The notes under the pieces: model-generated
What the model was told of the DNA's origin: nothing
What the model saw: the letters and a program-made list of their open reading frames with translations, nothing else
Databases searched by the model: none
Shown here: positions 6,096 to 12,735 of the stretch, piece by piece
How positions within the stretch are numbered: the stretch's first letter is position 1
How the letters are laid out: each line of letters begins with the position of its first letter
Translations under genes and position numbers: made by a program
Assembly: GCF_000773685.1 (NCBI RefSeq)
Contig: NZ_JPQO01000189.1
Location: forward strand, 1-46,375
From: Acinetobacter sp. HR7
Lineage (GTDB): Bacteria; Pseudomonadota; Gammaproteobacteria; Pseudomonadales; Moraxellaceae
DNA length: 46,375 bases
Direction: 5' to 3'

Positions 6096-6172
6096 TGGTG
6101 CGCTCAGAGAGATTCGAACTCCCGACCCCTTAGTTCGTAGCCAAGTGCTCTATCCAGCTGAGCTATGAGCGC
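6096..6172 (-). tRNA. tRNA-Arg (anticodon ACG), copy 1
   Basis: The minus strand gives a 77-base cloverleaf including encoded CCA: acceptor GCGCTCA pairs with TGAGCGC, anticodon stem CTTGG/CTAAG encloses loop CTACGAA (anticodon ACG), and the T arm is GGGAG TTCGAAT CTCTC. Bacterial tRNA-Arg(ACG) is normally edited to ICG by TadA. Identical to the copies at 7099 and 7224. Confidence 0.97.
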
Positions 6173-6190
6173 GACGTCTTGATGGGGTGC

Positions 6191-6218
6191 ATTATACGTG
6201 TTTTTTACCAGTTGTTAA
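6191..6218 (-). promoter_or_regulatory. Promoter of tRNA-Arg copy 1
   Basis: On the minus strand TTAACA (6213-6218) and TATAAT (6191-6196) are separated by 16 bases and followed by a GC-rich discriminator (GCACCCC), typical of stringently controlled stable-RNA promoters. Confidence 0.7.
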
Positions 6219-6367
6219 GTGCTTTTTAATAAAATCACAACCAAACGTACAGGAAATAAACGATATCGCCAATTTTCAGCTTTCTTGAGGAAAAATTCCG
6301 TAAATTTAGAGTTAAAAACAATTAATCATTTCAAACCAAAGTGTCGAAATTCTAAAGTATAAGTCTC

Positions 6368-6973
6368 TCAATCTTCAAATGTGCCCGTTTGCACTTCACC
6401 GACTTTCTGATAATGGCTAAACAATACACCATTTGCAGCCACCGCATGATCGACTAGCTGAAAAGATTTCGGCACTGATCTTTCATTAAACAGACGTTTG
6501 CCTTTACCCAAGACAACAGGAAAAGTCAGCAGATAAAGTTCATCGACCAGATCATGCTGGAAAAGGGTCTGTACCAGCGTGGCACTACCATGCACTCGGA
6601 TATCCCCACCCTCTGCTGCTTTTAGATTAATGACATCATTGATGCTATTTAAAAAGACCGTATTTTGCCAATCGGAATGATTCAGACTGGTAGACAGAAC
6701 ATATTTATTGACCTCATTGATGCCCGCCCAATCATCCGCATGTTGCGGCCAGTAAGGTTCAAAAATCTGGAAGGTATTTTTACCCAGCAGAATATCGGTA
6801 GACCGCATCCATTTTTCCATGATGGCGTCAAAGGCAGCGTCAGTTCCAGCAGAGAAATACGGCACGCCCCAGCCGCCATATTCAAAGCCACCGGAAGTAT
6901 CTTCTTCCTGACCGCCGGGCGCCTGCATCACGCCATCTATTGTGATCATTTCCTGGACAATTATTTTTCTCAT
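6368..6973 (-). CDS. Dihydrofolate reductase/RibD C-terminal family protein
   Basis: The 201-residue protein starts MRKIIVQEMITIDGVMQAPGG, the classical start of small RibD-C/DHFR-like reductases (YwjB type). Further marks are LLGKNTFQIFEPYWP and, near residue 125, DIRVHGSATLVQTL, which matches the NADPH-binding strand-helix of the fold, and LLTFPVVLGKGKRLF near residue 150. A reductase using NADPH is expected, but the substrate is not known and it should not be called true dihydrofolate reductase. It sits between tRNA-Arg copies 1 and 2, each followed by the same terminator. Confidence 0.85.
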   Translation of the reverse strand: MRKIIVQEMITIDGVMQAPGGQEEDTSGGFEYGGWGVPYFSAGTDAAFDAIMEKWMRSTDILLGKNTFQIFEPYWPQHADDWAGINEVNKYVLSTSLNHSDWQNTVFLNSINDVINLKAAEGGDIRVHGSATLVQTLFQHDLVDELYLLTFPVVLGKGKRLFNERSVPKSFQLVDHAVAANGVLFSHYQKVGEVQTGTFED

Positions 6974-7061
6974 TGCACATGCCTTTATTCTTATTTACTC
7001 ACCTGAGCATTATTTTTAGCATGGCTTTTATTGGGATGGGGATTTTGTAAATTTTAGGCAC

Positions 7062-7086
7062 AAAAAAACCGCATCAATGTGCGGTT
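7062..7086 (-). terminator. Terminator after the tRNA-Ser/Arg/Arg transcript
   Basis: Contains the same 25 bases as the element after tRNA-Arg copy 1: AACCGCA / TGCGGTT stem with a T run on the minus-strand transcript. Confidence 0.75.
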
Positions 7087-7098
7087 CATTGTTCAAGT

Positions 7099-7175
7099 TG
7101 GTGCGCTCAGAGAGATTCGAACTCCCGACCCCTTAGTTCGTAGCCAAGTGCTCTATCCAGCTGAGCTATGAGCGC
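7099..7175 (-). tRNA. tRNA-Arg (anticodon ACG), copy 2
   Basis: Identical over 77 bases to copy 1, with encoded CCA. It is the last tRNA of the Ser-Arg-Arg transcript. Confidence 0.97.
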
Positions 7176-7223
7176 GTAACTTGTGTCGTCTTAATAGACT
7201 TACGTTTTTTCCGGTTTACTTAT

Positions 7224-7300
7224 TGGTGCGCTCAGAGAGATTCGAACTCCCGACCCCTTAGTTCGTAGCCAAGTGCTCTATCCAGCTGAGCTATGAGCGC
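7224..7300 (-). tRNA. tRNA-Arg (anticodon ACG), copy 3
   Basis: Identical over 77 bases to copies 1 and 2, with encoded CCA. It lies 48 bases upstream of copy 2 and 13 bases downstream of tRNA-Ser. Confidence 0.97.
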
Positions 7301-7313
7301 GACATAAGTAAAG

Positions 7314-7403
7314 TGGCGGTGAGAGAGGGATTCGAACCCTCGATACAGTTGCCCGTATGCGTCCTTAGCAGGGACGTGGTTTCAGCCACTCACCCATCTC
7401 ACC
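7314..7403 (-). tRNA. tRNA-Ser (anticodon GCT)
   Basis: The minus strand gives a 90-base class II tRNA: acceptor GGTGAGA pairs with TCTCACC, anticodon stem CGTCC/GGACG encloses loop CTGCTAA (anticodon GCT, reads AGC/AGU), a long variable arm follows, and CCA is encoded (GCCA end). Confidence 0.96.
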
Positions 7404-7665: not shown

Positions 7666-10113
7666 ATGATGAAAAATTGGGTCGATCCTGAAGCAAAAGC
7701 TGAAGCTGAACGTTACGAAAACCCTATCCCAAGTCGCACGCTGATTTTAGAAACTATTGAAAAGAATAATGCCCAGTCGCATGCCGACCTGGTGGAATAT
7801 TTTGAAATTAAAGATCAAAAAAGTATTGATGCCCTGAACCACCGCCTGATTGCCATGGTGCGTGATGGCCAGCTGATGAAAGATGGCTTTAAATTCCAGA
7901 TCGCAGCTGAACAGCCAGAATACGAAGCGACGGTCTATATCAATTCCAAGGGTTTGGGGACGGCCAGTATTGCCGGACAGGATGACCTGTTACTGCCAGA
8001 GCGTGAACTGCGCCAGGTGTTTAATGGTGACCGCGTTAAAGTACGCCAGACTTCAGTTGACCGTAAAGGCAAAGCTTGGGGCTTTATTACCGAAGTCGTA
8101 CAGCACCGCGTCAAACAGATTATTGGCAAGTTGTGTGAATATGAAGGTGAATACTTTGTGCAGCCAGCCAGCCCGAATTCACATCAGCCGATTACACTAG
8201 AAAAAGAACTGATTGACCATGCACAGGTGAAGGTTGGCGATTTTATCCGTGTTGCGATTGATATCTATCCGACCAAGGATGAATTTTCTGCCGGCCATAT
8301 TGTGCAGTCCATGGCAGATAAAGCCGATACCGAAATCATCATTCCACAAACCATTCTGGAATATGGCCTGCCATATGAATTCCCGGAAGAAGTATTACAA
8401 GAAGCAGAAAGCTTTAAAGAACCGGATGAAAAAGACCGTGAAGGCCGCATTGATCTGCGTGACCTGGCTTTGGTCACCATTGATGGTGAAGATGCCCGCG
8501 ACTTTGACGATGCCGTATATGCAGAAAAACGCCCAGGTGGTGGTTACCGTGTAGTAGTCGCAATCGCCGATGTCAGCCACTATGTCCGTGTAGGTCGTCC
8601 GCTAGATGATGAAGCACAGGAACGTGGTACTTCGGTGTATTTCCCGCACTTTGTTTTACCAATGCTGCCTGAAGCGCTATCCAATGGTCTGTGTTCATTG
8701 AATCCACATGTCGACCGTCTGTGTATGGTCTGTGACCTGAAACTGTCGCGTGCTGGCCGCGTGACCGGCTTCGAGTTCTACCCTTCTGTCATGCACTCCA
8801 AAGCACGCCTGACTTATGATCAGGTGGCCAAGTACTTTGAAGGCGACAGTGATGCGATTATAGAAGATCGTGCAGTCCGTAAATCCCTGAATACCCTGTT
8901 CCAGCTATATCAGGTACTGAAGGGTCTACGCGCTGATCGTCATGCTATGGAATTCGAAACTGTTGAAACTTATATGACTTTCGACGAGTTAGGCGGTATT
9001 AAGGAGATTCTGCCACGTACCCGTAATGATGCACACAAGTTGATTGAAGAATGTATGTTACTGGCCAACGTGGCTGCGGCAGAATATGCTCTGGAAAATG
9101 ACATTCCAATGCTGTACCGCGTGCATCAGCCACCTGAATTCTCACGTATCCAGAAAGTCCGTGACTTCGTAAAACAGTTGGGTCTGACCTTCCCGGAACA
9201 GCCGACTCAGAAAGATTATCAGGAAGTCATTGAAGCAACCAAAGACCGGATCGATGCGCCAAGCATTCACGCGGTACTATTACGCTCCATGATGCAGGCT
9301 TACTATGGTGCGAAGAATGACGGTCACTATGGTCTGGCTTATGATGCTTATACGCACTTTACTTCGCCAATCCGTCGTTATCCGGATCTGTTGTTGCACC
9401 GTGCGATCAAGGCTCACTTAAGCAAAAAACCATATCCGATTTCTGGTGCTTCACTGGATGATGCCGGTGATCACTTCTCGGCAACTGAACGTCGTGCTGA
9501 TGAAGCTTCTCGTTCAGTGACTGGTTGGCTCAAAGCACACTATATGCAACAGCATATTGGAGATGAATTTGTCGGCCTTATTAGTGCCACAGCCGAGTTT
9601 GGTCTATTCGTGACATTAAAAGATCTGTATGTCGATGGTATGGTACATGTCAGCCAGCTCGGTGATGACTTCTTTGTCTTTGACCAAACCACACAATCGC
9701 TGGTCGGTCAGAGCCGTGGCCAGATCTTTGGTTTAGGTGATGAAGTGAAGGTCAAAGTGGCTGGCGTGAATCTGGAAGAACGCAAGATCGACTTTGAACT
9801 GATCCAGCAGCTTACCCACGCCGGTCGTCCGGTCCGTGCCCGTGCTCCACGTGTGGCAGAGAAAAAACCTGCGCCACGTCCAGAAGCCACTGAAGAAGTC
9901 TTTGGCAAGCATGAACGCGAATCCAAAGGCAATGGCGGTGCAGATGGAGAACAACCCAGACGACGCAAAAAAGACAAAGGAAAACCCAATTCCTACAGCA
10001 AAAAGTCTGCTAAAAAATCTTCAGGAAAGTCTGAAGCAAAGAATGCAGATAAAATAAAGAAAAAGGCAAAAGCTAAAAAGAAAAAATCTAATGCCAAGCC
10101 TAAGAGTGAATAA
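7666..10113 (+). CDS. rnr: Ribonuclease R
   Basis: The 815-residue protein is a 3'-5' exoribonuclease that degrades structured RNA, matures rRNA and acts in stress and trans-translation quality control. An N-terminal helix-turn-helix-like region (about 20-80) precedes two cold-shock domains (about 80-230), the RNB catalytic domain (about 260-590) and an S1 domain (about 645-730). The catalytic DARDFDDAV acidic cluster is near residue 275, and THFTSPIRRYPDLL is the conserved RNB end motif. The C-terminal 75 residues are Lys-rich and disordered, as in other RNase R proteins. Length matches E. coli RNase R. Two ATGs open the frame; no strong Shine-Dalgarno is seen. Confidence 0.97.
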   Translation: MMKNWVDPEAKAEAERYENPIPSRTLILETIEKNNAQSHADLVEYFEIKDQKSIDALNHRLIAMVRDGQLMKDGFKFQIAAEQPEYEATVYINSKGLGTASIAGQDDLLLPERELRQVFNGDRVKVRQTSVDRKGKAWGFITEVVQHRVKQIIGKLCEYEGEYFVQPASPNSHQPITLEKELIDHAQVKVGDFIRVAIDIYPTKDEFSAGHIVQSMADKADTEIIIPQTILEYGLPYEFPEEVLQEAESFKEPDEKDREGRIDLRDLALVTIDGEDARDFDDAVYAEKRPGGGYRVVVAIADVSHYVRVGRPLDDEAQERGTSVYFPHFVLPMLPEALSNGLCSLNPHVDRLCMVCDLKLSRAGRVTGFEFYPSVMHSKARLTYDQVAKYFEGDSDAIIEDRAVRKSLNTLFQLYQVLKGLRADRHAMEFETVETYMTFDELGGIKEILPRTRNDAHKLIEECMLLANVAAAEYALENDIPMLYRVHQPPEFSRIQKVRDFVKQLGLTFPEQPTQKDYQEVIEATKDRIDAPSIHAVLLRSMMQAYYGAKNDGHYGLAYDAYTHFTSPIRRYPDLLLHRAIKAHLSKKPYPISGASLDDAGDHFSATERRADEASRSVTGWLKAHYMQQHIGDEFVGLISATAEFGLFVTLKDLYVDGMVHVSQLGDDFFVFDQTTQSLVGQSRGQIFGLGDEVKVKVAGVNLEERKIDFELIQQLTHAGRPVRARAPRVAEKKPAPRPEATEEVFGKHERESKGNGGADGEQPRRRKKDKGKPNSYSKKSAKKSSGKSEAKNADKIKKKAKAKKKKSNAKPKSE

Positions 10114-10127
10114 TTTTTGTTGTTAAG

Positions 10128-10155
10128 ATAAAGAGAGCTTCGGCTCTCTTTATCT
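10128..10155 (+). terminator. Terminator after rnr
   Basis: GATAAAGAGAG / CTCTCTTTATC is a perfect 11-base-pair stem capped by CTTCGG, a very stable UUCG-type loop, followed by TTTTT. It separates rnr from the DpnI-like gene. Confidence 0.85.
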
Positions 10156-10168
10156 TTTTGGAAATCAT

Positions 10169-10615
10169 ATGGCATCAGAAAAACAAGTTTTAGGCTCTTG
10201 GGGAGAAAATTTAGTCAAAGATCACTGTCCTTGTCCAAAGTGTAAAAAAACTAAAACGTTTAAATTACTTCCACAAAATTTTAAATGTGCTGATCTTATC
10301 TGTGACTTTTGTGGATTTTTAGCACAAGTTAAATCAACAAGAGTAAAAAATGTAAATATTTTACCTAAAACAATTTTAGGAGCAGCATGGCTTCCACAGA
10401 AAGAACGTATGAATGCTTTTATCTATTTTCCTGTTTATTTAGTTCTTAAATCAGAAGAAGAATATGCTGTTTATTATTTACCAACAGACTTTCAATCTCC
10501 TGAACTTTTTGTACCTCGTAAACCGTTATCTGACCAAGCGAAACGAGCAGGTTGGCAAGGGTTTCTATACGATTTATCCAAAGTTCCTCAAGGGGCTTTC
10601 ATTCGAATCGTTTAA
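10169..10615 (+). CDS. Orphan DpnI-like PD-(D/E)XK nuclease-domain protein
   Basis: A 148-residue protein resembling the N-terminal catalytic half of DpnI and dam-replacing proteins. Two zinc knuckles, CPKC (about 22-25) and CDFC (about 46-49), flank the expected site. An Asp in KCADLICDFC is followed, with the same spacing as in DpnI, by QVK, where DpnI has E-x-K. Near the C-terminus RKPL, AKRAGWQG and DLSKVP match a conserved DpnI segment. The winged-helix methyl-DNA-reading domain of DpnI is absent. The coding DNA is clearly AT-rich (bases 10261-10320 hold 16 G/C in 60), unlike rnr and prlC on either side, which suggests transfer. No methyltransferase is adjacent. Nuclease activity is inferred; the Glu-to-Gln change could mean altered or lost catalysis, though QxK sites exist in Mrr-type enzymes. 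Confidence 0.75.
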   Translation: MASEKQVLGSWGENLVKDHCPCPKCKKTKTFKLLPQNFKCADLICDFCGFLAQVKSTRVKNVNILPKTILGAAWLPQKERMNAFIYFPVYLVLKSEEEYAVYYLPTDFQSPELFVPRKPLSDQAKRAGWQGFLYDLSKVPQGAFIRIV

Positions 10616-10695
10616 CTAAAATGCTGATCGGCTTGATTTCTCTATCAAGAAGCCTTACTTCTATAAACATCACAGGAAATAATCGGCAGACCGAC

Positions 10696-12735
10696 ATGAC
10701 ATTAGAAAAGGCAACTTTGCCTGTTCCACAATTTGACAAAATCACCCTAGCAGAACTGAAAGAAAAAATTGAAAGCTGTATTGCTGAAGGGCAGAAATTT
10801 CTCAACGAACTGACCGAAACCCCACAATCTGCTGAAGAACAGCTCGCCATTCTGGAACATGTCGATACGCTGGAAAATAACATGAGTGAGTCATGGGGCA
10901 TCCTGTCACATCTCAATGCCGTCATGAATAATGCCGAGACCCGTGAAGTCTATCAGAGCCTATTACCCGGTCTCAGCGACTATTACACCCAACTCGGTCA
11001 ACATACGGCGCTGTACCAGACCTATCAGCATGTTCATGATGCTCAGGTCTTTGCCGAACTGCCTGCAGCACAACAAAGTGCGATCAAACTGGCACTACGT
11101 GACTTTAAACTGTCCGGTGTAGCACTAGAAGGTGAAGCGAAAAAACGTTTTGCGGAAATCTCTGCCCGCCTGTCACAACTATCATCAGATTTCTCGAATC
11201 ATGTGCTGGATGCGACTCAAGCTTATTTCAGACCACTGAACGAAGATGAACTAGAAGGCCTGTCTGCCAGCAATATCGAATTACTGAAACAATATGGCCA
11301 ACAGCGTGAGCTGGATCAGCCAGTCGCCACCTTGGAGTTTCCTTCTTATTTGGCAATCATGACGCATTCTGCTAACCGCAGCCTGCGTGAAGAAATCTAC
11401 AAGGCCTATACCACCCGCGCTTCGGATCAGTCAGACAAGTCGGAGTTTGACAATACCCCGATCATGGAAGAAATCCTGAGCCTGCGTGAGGAAATGGCTA
11501 CCCTGCTCGGCTTTAACAACTATGCCGAATATTCACTGGCCAGCAAAATGGCGCCAAGCGTAGAAGCGGTGGATGAATTCCTGCGTGATCTGGCTGAACA
11601 TGCGCGTGAGCCAGCGCAAAAAGAAATTTCCGAACTGAAAGCCATTGCCGCTGAAGATAGCATTACTGAACTACAGCCTTGGGACAGCAGTTACTATTCT
11701 GAAAAGCTGAAAATGCGCCAGTTCAACCTGTCTCAGGAAGCGCTAAAACCGTATTTCCCGACACCAAAAGTGATTCAGGGTCTGTTTAGTATCGTCAATC
11801 GCCTGTATGGCATTCAGGTGGTGGAACGCGAAGCACCGTTATGGCATCCGGATGCACATTATTTTGAACTGGAAGACCAGGGCGAAGTCATTGGTGGCTT
11901 CTACTTTGACCTATATGCGCGTCAAGGTAAACGTGGCGGTGCCTGGATGAGTGGTTTCCGTTCACGTATGCGTGGCAAAGATGGCCTACAAAAACCGATT
12001 TGCTATATGGTCGGTAACTTTACGCCGCCTGTGGGTGACAAACCTGCTCTACTGAGCCATGATGAAGTCACTACACTATTTCACGAATTTGGTCATGGCC
12101 TGCATCATATGCTCACTGAAGTGGACAATATCGCGGTTGCCGGTACCCACGGCGTGGCTTGGGATGCCGTTGAACTGCCAAGCCAGTTTATGGAATTTTG
12201 GGCATGGGATCAGGAAAGTCTGAATCTGCTAAGTGAACATATTGAAACCAAAGAAGTCCTTCCAGCAGACTTGCTAAAAGCTTTACTGGATGCCCGTTTC
12301 TTCCAGTCTGGCATGCAAACCCTACGTCAGCTCGAGTTTGCCCTGTTTGACCTGACCATTCACCGTGCCAACCCCGCACTGAATGCCGAGCAGATTCAGG
12401 CCACGCTGAATGATATCCGCGACAAATATGCGGTTTTGCCAACGACACCATATAACCGCTTCCAGCACAGCTTTAGCCATATCTTTGCAGGTGGTTATGC
12501 AGCCGGTTATTACTCGTATAAGTGGGCAGAAGTTTTGGCTAGCGATGCCTTTGACCGTTTTGAAACCGAGGGCATTTTCAATACTGAAACTGGCAAAGCC
12601 TTCCGTAAAAACATTTTAGCCGTTGGTGGTAAAGACAAGGCACTGGATGCATTTGTAAACTTCCGTGGTCGTGAACCGAAAATTGATGCCCTGCTGCGTC
12701 ATCAAGGTTGGACGAATACGGTAAAAAATGCTTAA
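10696..12735 (+). CDS. prlC: Oligopeptidase A, M3 zinc metallopeptidase
   Basis: The 679-residue protein cleaves short peptides in the cytoplasm, including signal-peptide fragments. The zinc motif HEFGH is at residues 463-467, with the third ligand Glu in DAVELPSQF near 490 and the FSHIFAGGYAAGYYSYKWAE substrate-binding segment near residue 600. Length equals E. coli OpdA (680). The ATG at 10696 is chosen because the downstream sequence aligns with the usual OpdA N-terminus; the frame is open further upstream but that part overlaps the DpnI-like gene. The YheV-type zinc ribbon follows 31 bases after the stop, an arrangement common in gammaproteobacteria. Confidence 0.96.
   Translation: MTLEKATLPVPQFDKITLAELKEKIESCIAEGQKFLNELTETPQSAEEQLAILEHVDTLENNMSESWGILSHLNAVMNNAETREVYQSLLPGLSDYYTQLGQHTALYQTYQHVHDAQVFAELPAAQQSAIKLALRDFKLSGVALEGEAKKRFAEISARLSQLSSDFSNHVLDATQAYFRPLNEDELEGLSASNIELLKQYGQQRELDQPVATLEFPSYLAIMTHSANRSLREEIYKAYTTRASDQSDKSEFDNTPIMEEILSLREEMATLLGFNNYAEYSLASKMAPSVEAVDEFLRDLAEHAREPAQKEISELKAIAAEDSITELQPWDSSYYSEKLKMRQFNLSQEALKPYFPTPKVIQGLFSIVNRLYGIQVVEREAPLWHPDAHYFELEDQGEVIGGFYFDLYARQGKRGGAWMSGFRSRMRGKDGLQKPICYMVGNFTPPVGDKPALLSHDEVTTLFHEFGHGLHHMLTEVDNIAVAGTHGVAWDAVELPSQFMEFWAWDQESLNLLSEHIETKEVLPADLLKALLDARFFQSGMQTLRQLEFALFDLTIHRANPALNAEQIQATLNDIRDKYAVLPTTPYNRFQHSFSHIFAGGYAAGYYSYKWAEVLASDAFDRFETEGIFNTETGKAFRKNILAVGGKDKALDAFVNFRGREPKIDALLRHQGWTNTVKNA

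What the first reader, a model, noticed from the sequence alone, without database searches (positions are those of the whole stretch)
10169..10615. Orphan, single-domain DpnI-like nuclease with Gln in the active site
Seen: two zinc knuckles, an Asp-to-QVK spacing identical to the Asp-to-E-x-K of DpnI, and a C-terminal RKPL / RAGW / DLS-VP series. Known: DpnI is a PD-(D/E)XK nuclease that cuts methylated GATC and needs a winged-helix domain, absent here. Inference: a stripped DpnI relative may have a different target or be regulated differently. The AT-rich coding DNA, a terminator in front and no adjacent methyltransferase suggest a horizontally gained orphan defence gene inserted between rnr and prlC.
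Basis: partly seen in the sequence, partly recalled or inferred. Interest (0 to 1): 0.8.

Follow-up and report, generated by a model that had tools for sequence, protein, structure and literature searches.

The report
Minimal one-domain DpnI-type methyl-DNA nuclease
A small, horizontally moving bacterial gene encodes just the cutting half of the enzyme DpnI, with the residues that recognise methylated GATC kept and one catalytic glutamate replaced by glutamine, and the same minimal form turns up in many distantly related bacteria.

Summary
The ORF at 10169-10615 is real: 148 aa, 33% GC, between rnr and prlC. It is a true DpnI relative (Pfam DpnI 8.6e-20; AlphaFold2 model pLDDT 94, on DpnI 4kyw at Z 16.5, 2.0 A over 143 of 148 residues). 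DpnI's C-terminal winged helix is absent. It is not a lone stripped copy: one scan found 59 related loci in genome contigs from many phyla, and three viral contigs and one plasmid carry it too. In 53 aligned short proteins, catalytic Asp and Lys are invariant, Gln replaces Glu in 52, and the residues with which DpnI's catalytic domain reads Gm6ATC (Q18, N48, R126, L129, R135, W138, G140) are kept in 51-53. The short forms stand apart from 8 homologues of the main DpnI group (100/100). I therefore read it as a minimal methyl-GATC-dependent nuclease, most likely defensive, rather than an enzyme with a new target. No partner gene recurs, gene GC is often below its locus, and the rnr-prlC interval exchanges cargo in this genus; in a same-species genome an IS30-type insertion splits the gene. 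Cleavage, specificity and defence are untested. New variant of a known kind.

The parts
10169..10615 (+). ORF of the short DpnI-like protein, 148 aa plus stop
   Evidence: AlphaFold2 model; fold match
10184..10186 (+). codon of Q6, matching DpnI Q18 (minor-groove contact)
   Evidence: 52 of 53; correspondence from the offset of the structural alignment (inference)
10232..10243 (+). first CxxC pair (C22, C25)
   Evidence: 53 of 53
10277..10279 (+). codon of N37, matching DpnI N48 (guanine contact)
   Evidence: 53 of 53; alignment
10292..10294 (+). codon of catalytic D42 (DpnI D53)
   Evidence: 53 of 53; alignment
10301..10312 (+). second CxxC pair (C45, C48)
   Evidence: 53 of 53
10325..10333 (+). 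Q53-V54-K55, in the place of DpnI E64-L65-K66
   Evidence: Q in 52 of 53 (Arg in L073), K in 53 of 53
10517..10561 (+). loop R117-G131 (RKPL ... RAGWQG), in the place of DpnI R126-G140, which reads guanines and both methyl groups
   Evidence: R117, L120, W129, G131 53 of 53; R126 51 of 53; DpnI roles from PMC4117772
10125..10159 (+). rnr terminator hairpin and T-run, ending 9 bases before the ATG
   Evidence: sequence; folding; not listed by the scan
10632..10665 (+). block in front of prlC that recurs in relatives, probably the prlC promoter
   Evidence: by eye in the 19 of 27 intervals printed; promoter role inferred (no promoter listed there)

Best explanation
The protein is a one-domain, DpnI-type, N6-methyladenine-dependent endonuclease that moves between genomes as a single cargo gene. 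Its N-terminal helix would lie in the minor groove and its R117-G131 loop in the major groove of Gm6ATC; W129 with L120 and R126 would hold the two methyl groups, and R117, R126 and N37 would read the guanines. D42, Q53 and K55 would bind Mg2+ and cut within the site. In a host with unmethylated GATC it needs no partner methyltransferase and would cut phage or plasmid DNA that comes from Dam-positive cells. Because it lacks the winged-helix effector domain that goes with DpnI's type IIE behaviour, I expect single-site action without stimulation by a second site. Shown here: homology, predicted fold, missing domain, conserved residues, separate grouping, patchy spread. Inferred: cleavage, Gm6ATC specificity, single-site action, defence.
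For: PF06044 8.6e-20; model on DpnI 4kyw at Z 16.5, rmsd 2.0 A, 143 of 148 residues, next family Z 10.6. D42 and K55 53 of 53, Q53 52 of 53; DpnI base- and methyl-reading residues kept in 51-53 of 53. Low dN/dS: 0.016-0.149 in 9 of 11 close pairs. Gln also stands in this place in a full-length homologue of the same genus that keeps RAGW and DpnI_C, and PD-QXK is the motif given for the Mrr catalytic domain (PMC11037411, passages and section 14). No recurring partner. PADLOC's methyl-directed nuclease model matches 51 of 52. Dam over the cut-off in 1 of 38 Pseudomonadota hosts against 48 of 299 in the phylum.
Against: No activity was tested. The metal-binding Glu64 of DpnI is replaced by Gln in 52 of 53, which could weaken or stop catalysis. 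S17, a DpnI contact to the site, is Lys or Arg in 53 of 53. In DpnI, winged-helix mutants impair DNA binding by the catalytic domain (PMC4117772, passage). One host (L019) has a Dam-family gene over the cut-off, and the window's own genome has a Dam-family gene below it. The Dam comparison was not lineage-matched and gives only p 0.16 for the Gammaproteobacteria. Of the 11 pairs, one had dN/dS 0.62 (3 changes in all) and one was saturated. The start codon lies 9 bases after a terminator, so expression here is uncertain.
Confidence: 0.65

Rival explanations
1. A catalytically weak or dead reader: Gln53 disables the metal site, and the protein binds Gm6ATC without cutting, as a sensor or competitor.
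For: Gln instead of Glu in 52 of 53 and Arg in one; 9 of the 10 DpnI-group homologues with a readable motif have Glu there.
Against: Catalytic D42 and K55 are invariant in 53 of 53, which a pure reader would not need; one full-length DpnI homologue and the Mrr domain have Gln there.
Confidence: 0.15
2. An active nuclease with another target: adenine methylation in a different context, or relaxed specificity because the second reader domain is missing.
For: S17 is replaced by Lys or Arg in 53 of 53; R126 is Lys in L014 and L019.
Against: The other DpnI contacts to the site are kept in 51-53 of 53.
Confidence: 0.14
3. In this strain the gene is a passing, silent or decaying passenger without function.
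For: A same-species genome has it split by an IS30-type insertion; the start codon sits 9 bases after a terminator.
Against: The copy here is intact and keeps every residue checked; close pairs elsewhere in the family show purifying selection, though the window's own copy was not tested in that way.
Confidence: 0.06

Closest known systems
R.DpnI (PDB 4kyw, 4esj; Pfam PF06044 + PF17726), type IIM
   Same: Catalytic-domain fold (Z 16.5), catalytic Asp and Lys, CxxC pairs, methyl pocket and guanine readers
   Different: Winged helix absent; Gln in place of the metal-binding Glu; 148 aa against 254; about 27-29% identity
Drg, the dam-replacing gene product of Neisseria (GmeATC endonuclease; PMC4269198, abstract as listed)
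   Same: GC-poor inserted gene of the DpnI kind, without a Dam partner
   Different: By tblastn the Neisseria gonorrhoeae homologue matches a full-length DpnI relative over 96% of its length, winged-helix part included; that this place is drg is my inference. The short form sits at another locus
Full-length DpnI homologues in the same genus (L009, L010)
   Same: PF06044; L009 also has Gln at the Glu place and RAGW
   Different: Both carry DpnI_C; L010 lacks RAGW; the tree puts them with the full-length group (as L006 and L002)
NhoI / Eco15I (BisI family)
   Same: Next-best fold match (Z 10.6); modification-dependent nuclease
   Different: Reads modified cytosines in GCNGC (PMC11347163, abstract as listed); 13-20% identity
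Mrr-type PD-QXK nuclease domains
   Same: Gln at the corresponding place of the motif (PMC11037411, passages)
   Different: Other modification-reading domains and mostly other targets; no Mrr family matched here

Membership tests
DpnI catalytic domain (PF06044) | Profile score over the curated cut-off | tested here: met
   71.6 bits against 26.7; 52 of 52 short forms match at E 0.01
DpnI catalytic domain (PF06044) | DpnI-like PD-(D/E)XK fold | tested here: met
   4kyw Z 16.5, rmsd 2.0 A, 143 of 148 residues; predicted model
R.DpnI-type enzyme (type IIM/IIE, two domains) | C-terminal winged helix (PF17726) | tested here: not met
   0 of 52 short forms, 4 of 4 full-length controls
R.DpnI-type enzyme (type IIM/IIE, two domains) | Catalytic D-E-K triad | tested here: not met
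   Asp and Lys kept in 53 of 53, Glu replaced by Gln in 52 and Arg in 1
R.DpnI-type enzyme (type IIM/IIE, two domains) | Residues that read Gm6ATC in the catalytic domain | tested here: met
   7 of the 8 side-chain positions compared are kept in 51-53 of 53; S17 is not
R.DpnI-type enzyme (type IIM/IIE, two domains) | Cleavage of Gm6ATC, stimulated by a second site | not testable with these tools
   needs purified protein
Methyl-directed defence gene | No Dam methylation in the host | tested here: inconclusive
   1 of 50 hosts over the cut-off, 8 of 50 with any match; not lineage-matched, completeness unknown; own genome has a Dam-family gene below the cut-off
Methyl-directed defence gene | Defence-island or mobile context | tested here: inconclusive
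   scattered defence, integrase and terminase hits among 148 neighbouring ORFs, no recurring partner, no background count

The most novel reading that the evidence does not exclude
A phylum-spanning family of minimal, partner-free Gm6ATC nucleases with a D-x10-QxK site that act on single sites without an effector domain: the smallest adenine-methylation-dependent restriction genes, also present in streamlined ocean bacteria (SAR11, SAR86, Actinomarina, Marinimicrobia).
Probability: 0.45. Interest if true: 0.65.

Novelty: new variant of a known kind. Interest (0 to 1): 0.5.

Why it matters
DpnI is the model for reading two adenine methyl groups at once, and both of its domains read them. A natural form with only the catalytic domain makes it testable what that domain can do alone, whether the winged helix causes the two-site behaviour, and how Gln serves at this metal site. 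It would also show how a single small gene can spread protection against Dam-methylated DNA, and might give a smaller methyl-GATC tool enzyme.

Tried and rejected
Chance match: rejected. Frame-shifted remnant of a two-domain dpnI: rejected; the ORF ends where other short forms end, and the short forms group apart. Conserved partner gene: none found within 6 kb or less; the two commonest neighbour clusters are in 4 loci each, one made of three SAR11 near-copies and L016, the other of proteins of 360-434 aa that I read as integrases. NCBIfam gave no family; PHROGs only weak matches; phage records none. The first scan of genome contigs, with the single protein, found nothing; the scan with a 3-row alignment found 59. 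A full-length homologue found no relative in viral contigs and two Neisseria records in the plasmid collection. Promoter scan: 2 sites, both on the - strand, 1.8 expected. Rows dropped before the 53-row alignment: 11 of 63 loci (six near-copies L027, L029, L034, L049, L056, L067; two cut by a contig end, L038 and L068; two with broken frames, L069 and L071; L070 with a divergent end). Literature: the searches listed no title on a DpnI relative without a winged helix; only open-licence PMC papers are searched, and Siwek 2012 was not held.

Full report
What is there. The window holds an intact 148-residue ORF at 10169-10615 between rnr (7666-10113) and prlC (start taken as 10696; stop at 12735). 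The gene has 33% GC and 16% at third positions, against 47-48% and 44-46% for its neighbours. It scores over the Pfam cut-off for DpnI (8.6e-20), and DpnI is the best solved structure by sequence (5.5e-9).

Fold. An AlphaFold2 model from a 52-row alignment has mean pLDDT 94.3 and pTM 0.87. VIA-align puts it on DpnI 4kyw at Z 16.5, rmsd 2.0 A, with 143 of 148 residues aligned; the next family is NhoI at Z 10.6. Foldseek gives 4kyw E 2.1e-11 and TM 0.86 over the query. The aligned part is residues 13-157 of DpnI; its catalytic domain is residues 1-182 and its winged helix 183-254 (PMC4117772, introduction read).

A family, not an orphan truncation. A scan with three rows (window, L003, L011) found 59 loci in genome contigs; three viral contigs and one Azospirillum plasmid carry it too. 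By record titles the 59 include Gamma-, Beta- and Alphaproteobacteria, SAR11, SAR86, Marinimicrobia, Actinomarina, Corynebacterium, Chloroflexi, Acidobacteria, Phycisphaerales, Verrucomicrobia, Rhodothermales and a Marine Group III archaeal MAG. Many are MAGs or single-cell genomes, so single assignments may be contamination. The scan used the words LP[PQ]NFKCA and D[LV]ICDFCG, so the set leans towards members that keep them; QVK was not in a pattern. I aligned 53 proteins (11 of 63 loci dropped, listed in Tried and rejected); they are 52-70% identical to the window protein. DpnI_C matches 0 of the 52 scanned (the plasmid row was left out there), while 4 of 4 full-length homologues carry it. 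A tree of these 53 with 8 homologues of the main DpnI group (six of 245-273 aa; L117 with 217 aa and L122 with 177 aa end early, so lack of the winged helix is not quite confined to the short group) puts the short forms on one side of a branch at 100/100 (bootstrap not settled, root unknown). Distant phyla mix inside the short group: SAR86, Actinomarina, Marinimicrobia and a Chloroflexi MAG fall together at 100/94.

Residues. DpnI roles are from PMC4117772 (sections 3 and 18 and part 1 of section 11 read; passages). Catalytic D53, E64 and K66 correspond to D42 (53 of 53), Q53 (52 of 53; Arg in L073) and K55 (53 of 53). Methyl-pocket L129, R135 and W138, and G140 that supports W138, correspond to L120 (53), R126 (51; Lys in L014 and L019), W129 (53) and G131 (53). 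Guanine readers R126 and N48 correspond to R117 (53) and N37 (53). Minor-groove Q18 corresponds to Q6 (52; His in L064), by the offset of the structural alignment. S17 is Lys or Arg in 53 of 53. This argues against a wholly new target. Gln at the Glu place is not unique to short forms: a full-length homogue of the same genus (L006/L009) has it and keeps RAGW and DpnI_C. Of the 10 distinct main-group homologues with a readable motif, 9 have Glu and this one Gln. Another full-length homologue in the genus (L002/L010) lacks RAGW.

Selection. In 11 close pairs of short-form genes, dN/dS was 0.016-0.149 in 9, 0.62 in one (3 changes in all) and undefined in one (synonymous sites saturated) (pairs compared without gaps). 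This is purifying selection in the family; the window's own copy had no suitable pair.

Spread. PF06044 over the cut-off is in 2 of 99 genomes of the genus, own included, 4 of 274 of the class and 9 of 398 of the phylum. In the class set one more short form appears (L076). With the protein as query, 3 of 175 genomes of the genus match, own included: one is the full-length homologue L006, and the other is a same-species genome where an insertion of about 1.1 kb with a 3-base repeat splits the gene. The insert carries a long open frame that I recognise from memory as an IS30-type transposase. Gene GC is at least 0.05 below its locus in 29 of 63 loci and at least 0.05 above it in 0 of 63.

The site. 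All 60 genomes of the genus searched have prlC; I held the 30 best loci, own included. In 28 of the 30, rnr lies within 1.5 kb upstream. Of the 27 others among these, 9 have an interval of 135-193 bp, one has 274 bp and 17 have 471-991 bp, many with unrelated small ORFs; I saw this gene in none. The window's interval without the gene would be 135 bp. A hairpin after rnr and a block before prlC recur in the 19 intervals that I printed (by eye). So the stretch between the rnr terminator and the likely prlC promoter takes different cargo. The start codon is 9 bases after the T-run of the terminator, so transcription must come by read-through or from a promoter at or above the hairpin; expression may be low.

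Dam. TIGR00571 over the cut-off is in 1 of 50 host genomes examined (50 of 59; 8 of 50 at E 0.001). Of the 38 that I class as Pseudomonadota by titles and tree labels, 1 has it, against 48 of 299 drawn from the phylum: one-sided Fisher 0.015. For the 10 that I class as Gammaproteobacteria (Betaproteobacteria included), 1 of 10 against 55 of 185 gives 0.16. Host completeness is unknown and lineages were not matched, so this only leans towards Dam-negative hosts. The one host over the cut-off, L019, is one of the two with Lys for R126. The window's own genome has a Dam-family gene below the cut-off (81.5 bits) beside a DnaC-like helicase-loader gene, and a second D12 methyltransferase between genes that I read as ribD and ribE. 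If either methylates GATC, an active enzyme would be harmful there; I could not test this.

Neighbours. I scanned 148 of 261 neighbouring ORFs of at least 110 aa, the nearest ones. PADLOC at 1e-8 matched 77 families (first 25 shown): mad2 in 4 ORFs, the others shown in 1 or 2, among them type IIG enzymes, methyltransferases, SspH and DrmMI. Pfam matched 106 families (first 25 shown): two integrases, one phage terminase and one AspBHI-type nuclease among ordinary metabolic genes. No background was run. PADLOC's methyl-directed nuclease model matches 51 of 52 short forms, so a defence scan may already flag them.

Reading. Conserved catalytic and methyl-reading residues, purifying selection, patchy single-gene spread and a lean towards Dam-negative hosts fit a minimal Gm6ATC-dependent nuclease used against foreign DNA, as DpnI is (PMC4117772, introduction). 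Drg of Neisseria has the same specificity and a low-GC locus (PMC4269198, abstract in the listing). In DpnI the winged helix plays the part of an effector domain, as in type IIE enzymes (PMC11037411, passages); its absence predicts single-site action. Cutting, specificity and biological role remain to be tested. My searches, which cover open-licence PMC papers only, listed no paper on such a short form.

Noticed in passing
window 10114-10695; L088-L116: The interval between the rnr terminator and prlC holds different small genes in different genomes of the genus, like a small cargo spot.
   Followed up: partly
window 10125-10171: The rnr terminator hairpin ends 9 bases before the start codon of the nuclease gene, which leaves no room for a promoter of its own between them.
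   Followed up: partly
window 6096-7403: Three tRNA-Arg(acg) genes and a tRNA-Ser lie on the - strand, with a 201-aa ORF at 6368-6973 (dihydrofolate-reductase/RibD-like by my recognition) between two of the tRNA-Arg copies.
   Followed up: no
L012 1072-2361 (-): In the window's own genome a 430-aa D12-type DNA methyltransferase lies between genes that I read as ribD and ribE.
   Followed up: no
L010 5999-6799: A full-length DpnI homologue in the same genus, between genes that I read as panB and panC, lacks the RAGW motif that holds the methyl groups in DpnI, yet keeps DpnI_C.
   Followed up: no
L073 6001-6468: A short form on a viral contig has Arg in place of the active-site Gln.
   Followed up: no
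L048 4521-5972; L058 6556-7986; a 189-aa piece in L032: Three alphaproteobacterial loci share an unknown neighbour of about 480 aa, directly upstream of the nuclease in L048 and just downstream in L058.
   Followed up: no
L122 1471-2001: A Glu-type homologue of the main DpnI group ends at 177 aa, so loss of the winged helix may have happened outside the short group too, or the frame is broken.
   Followed up: no
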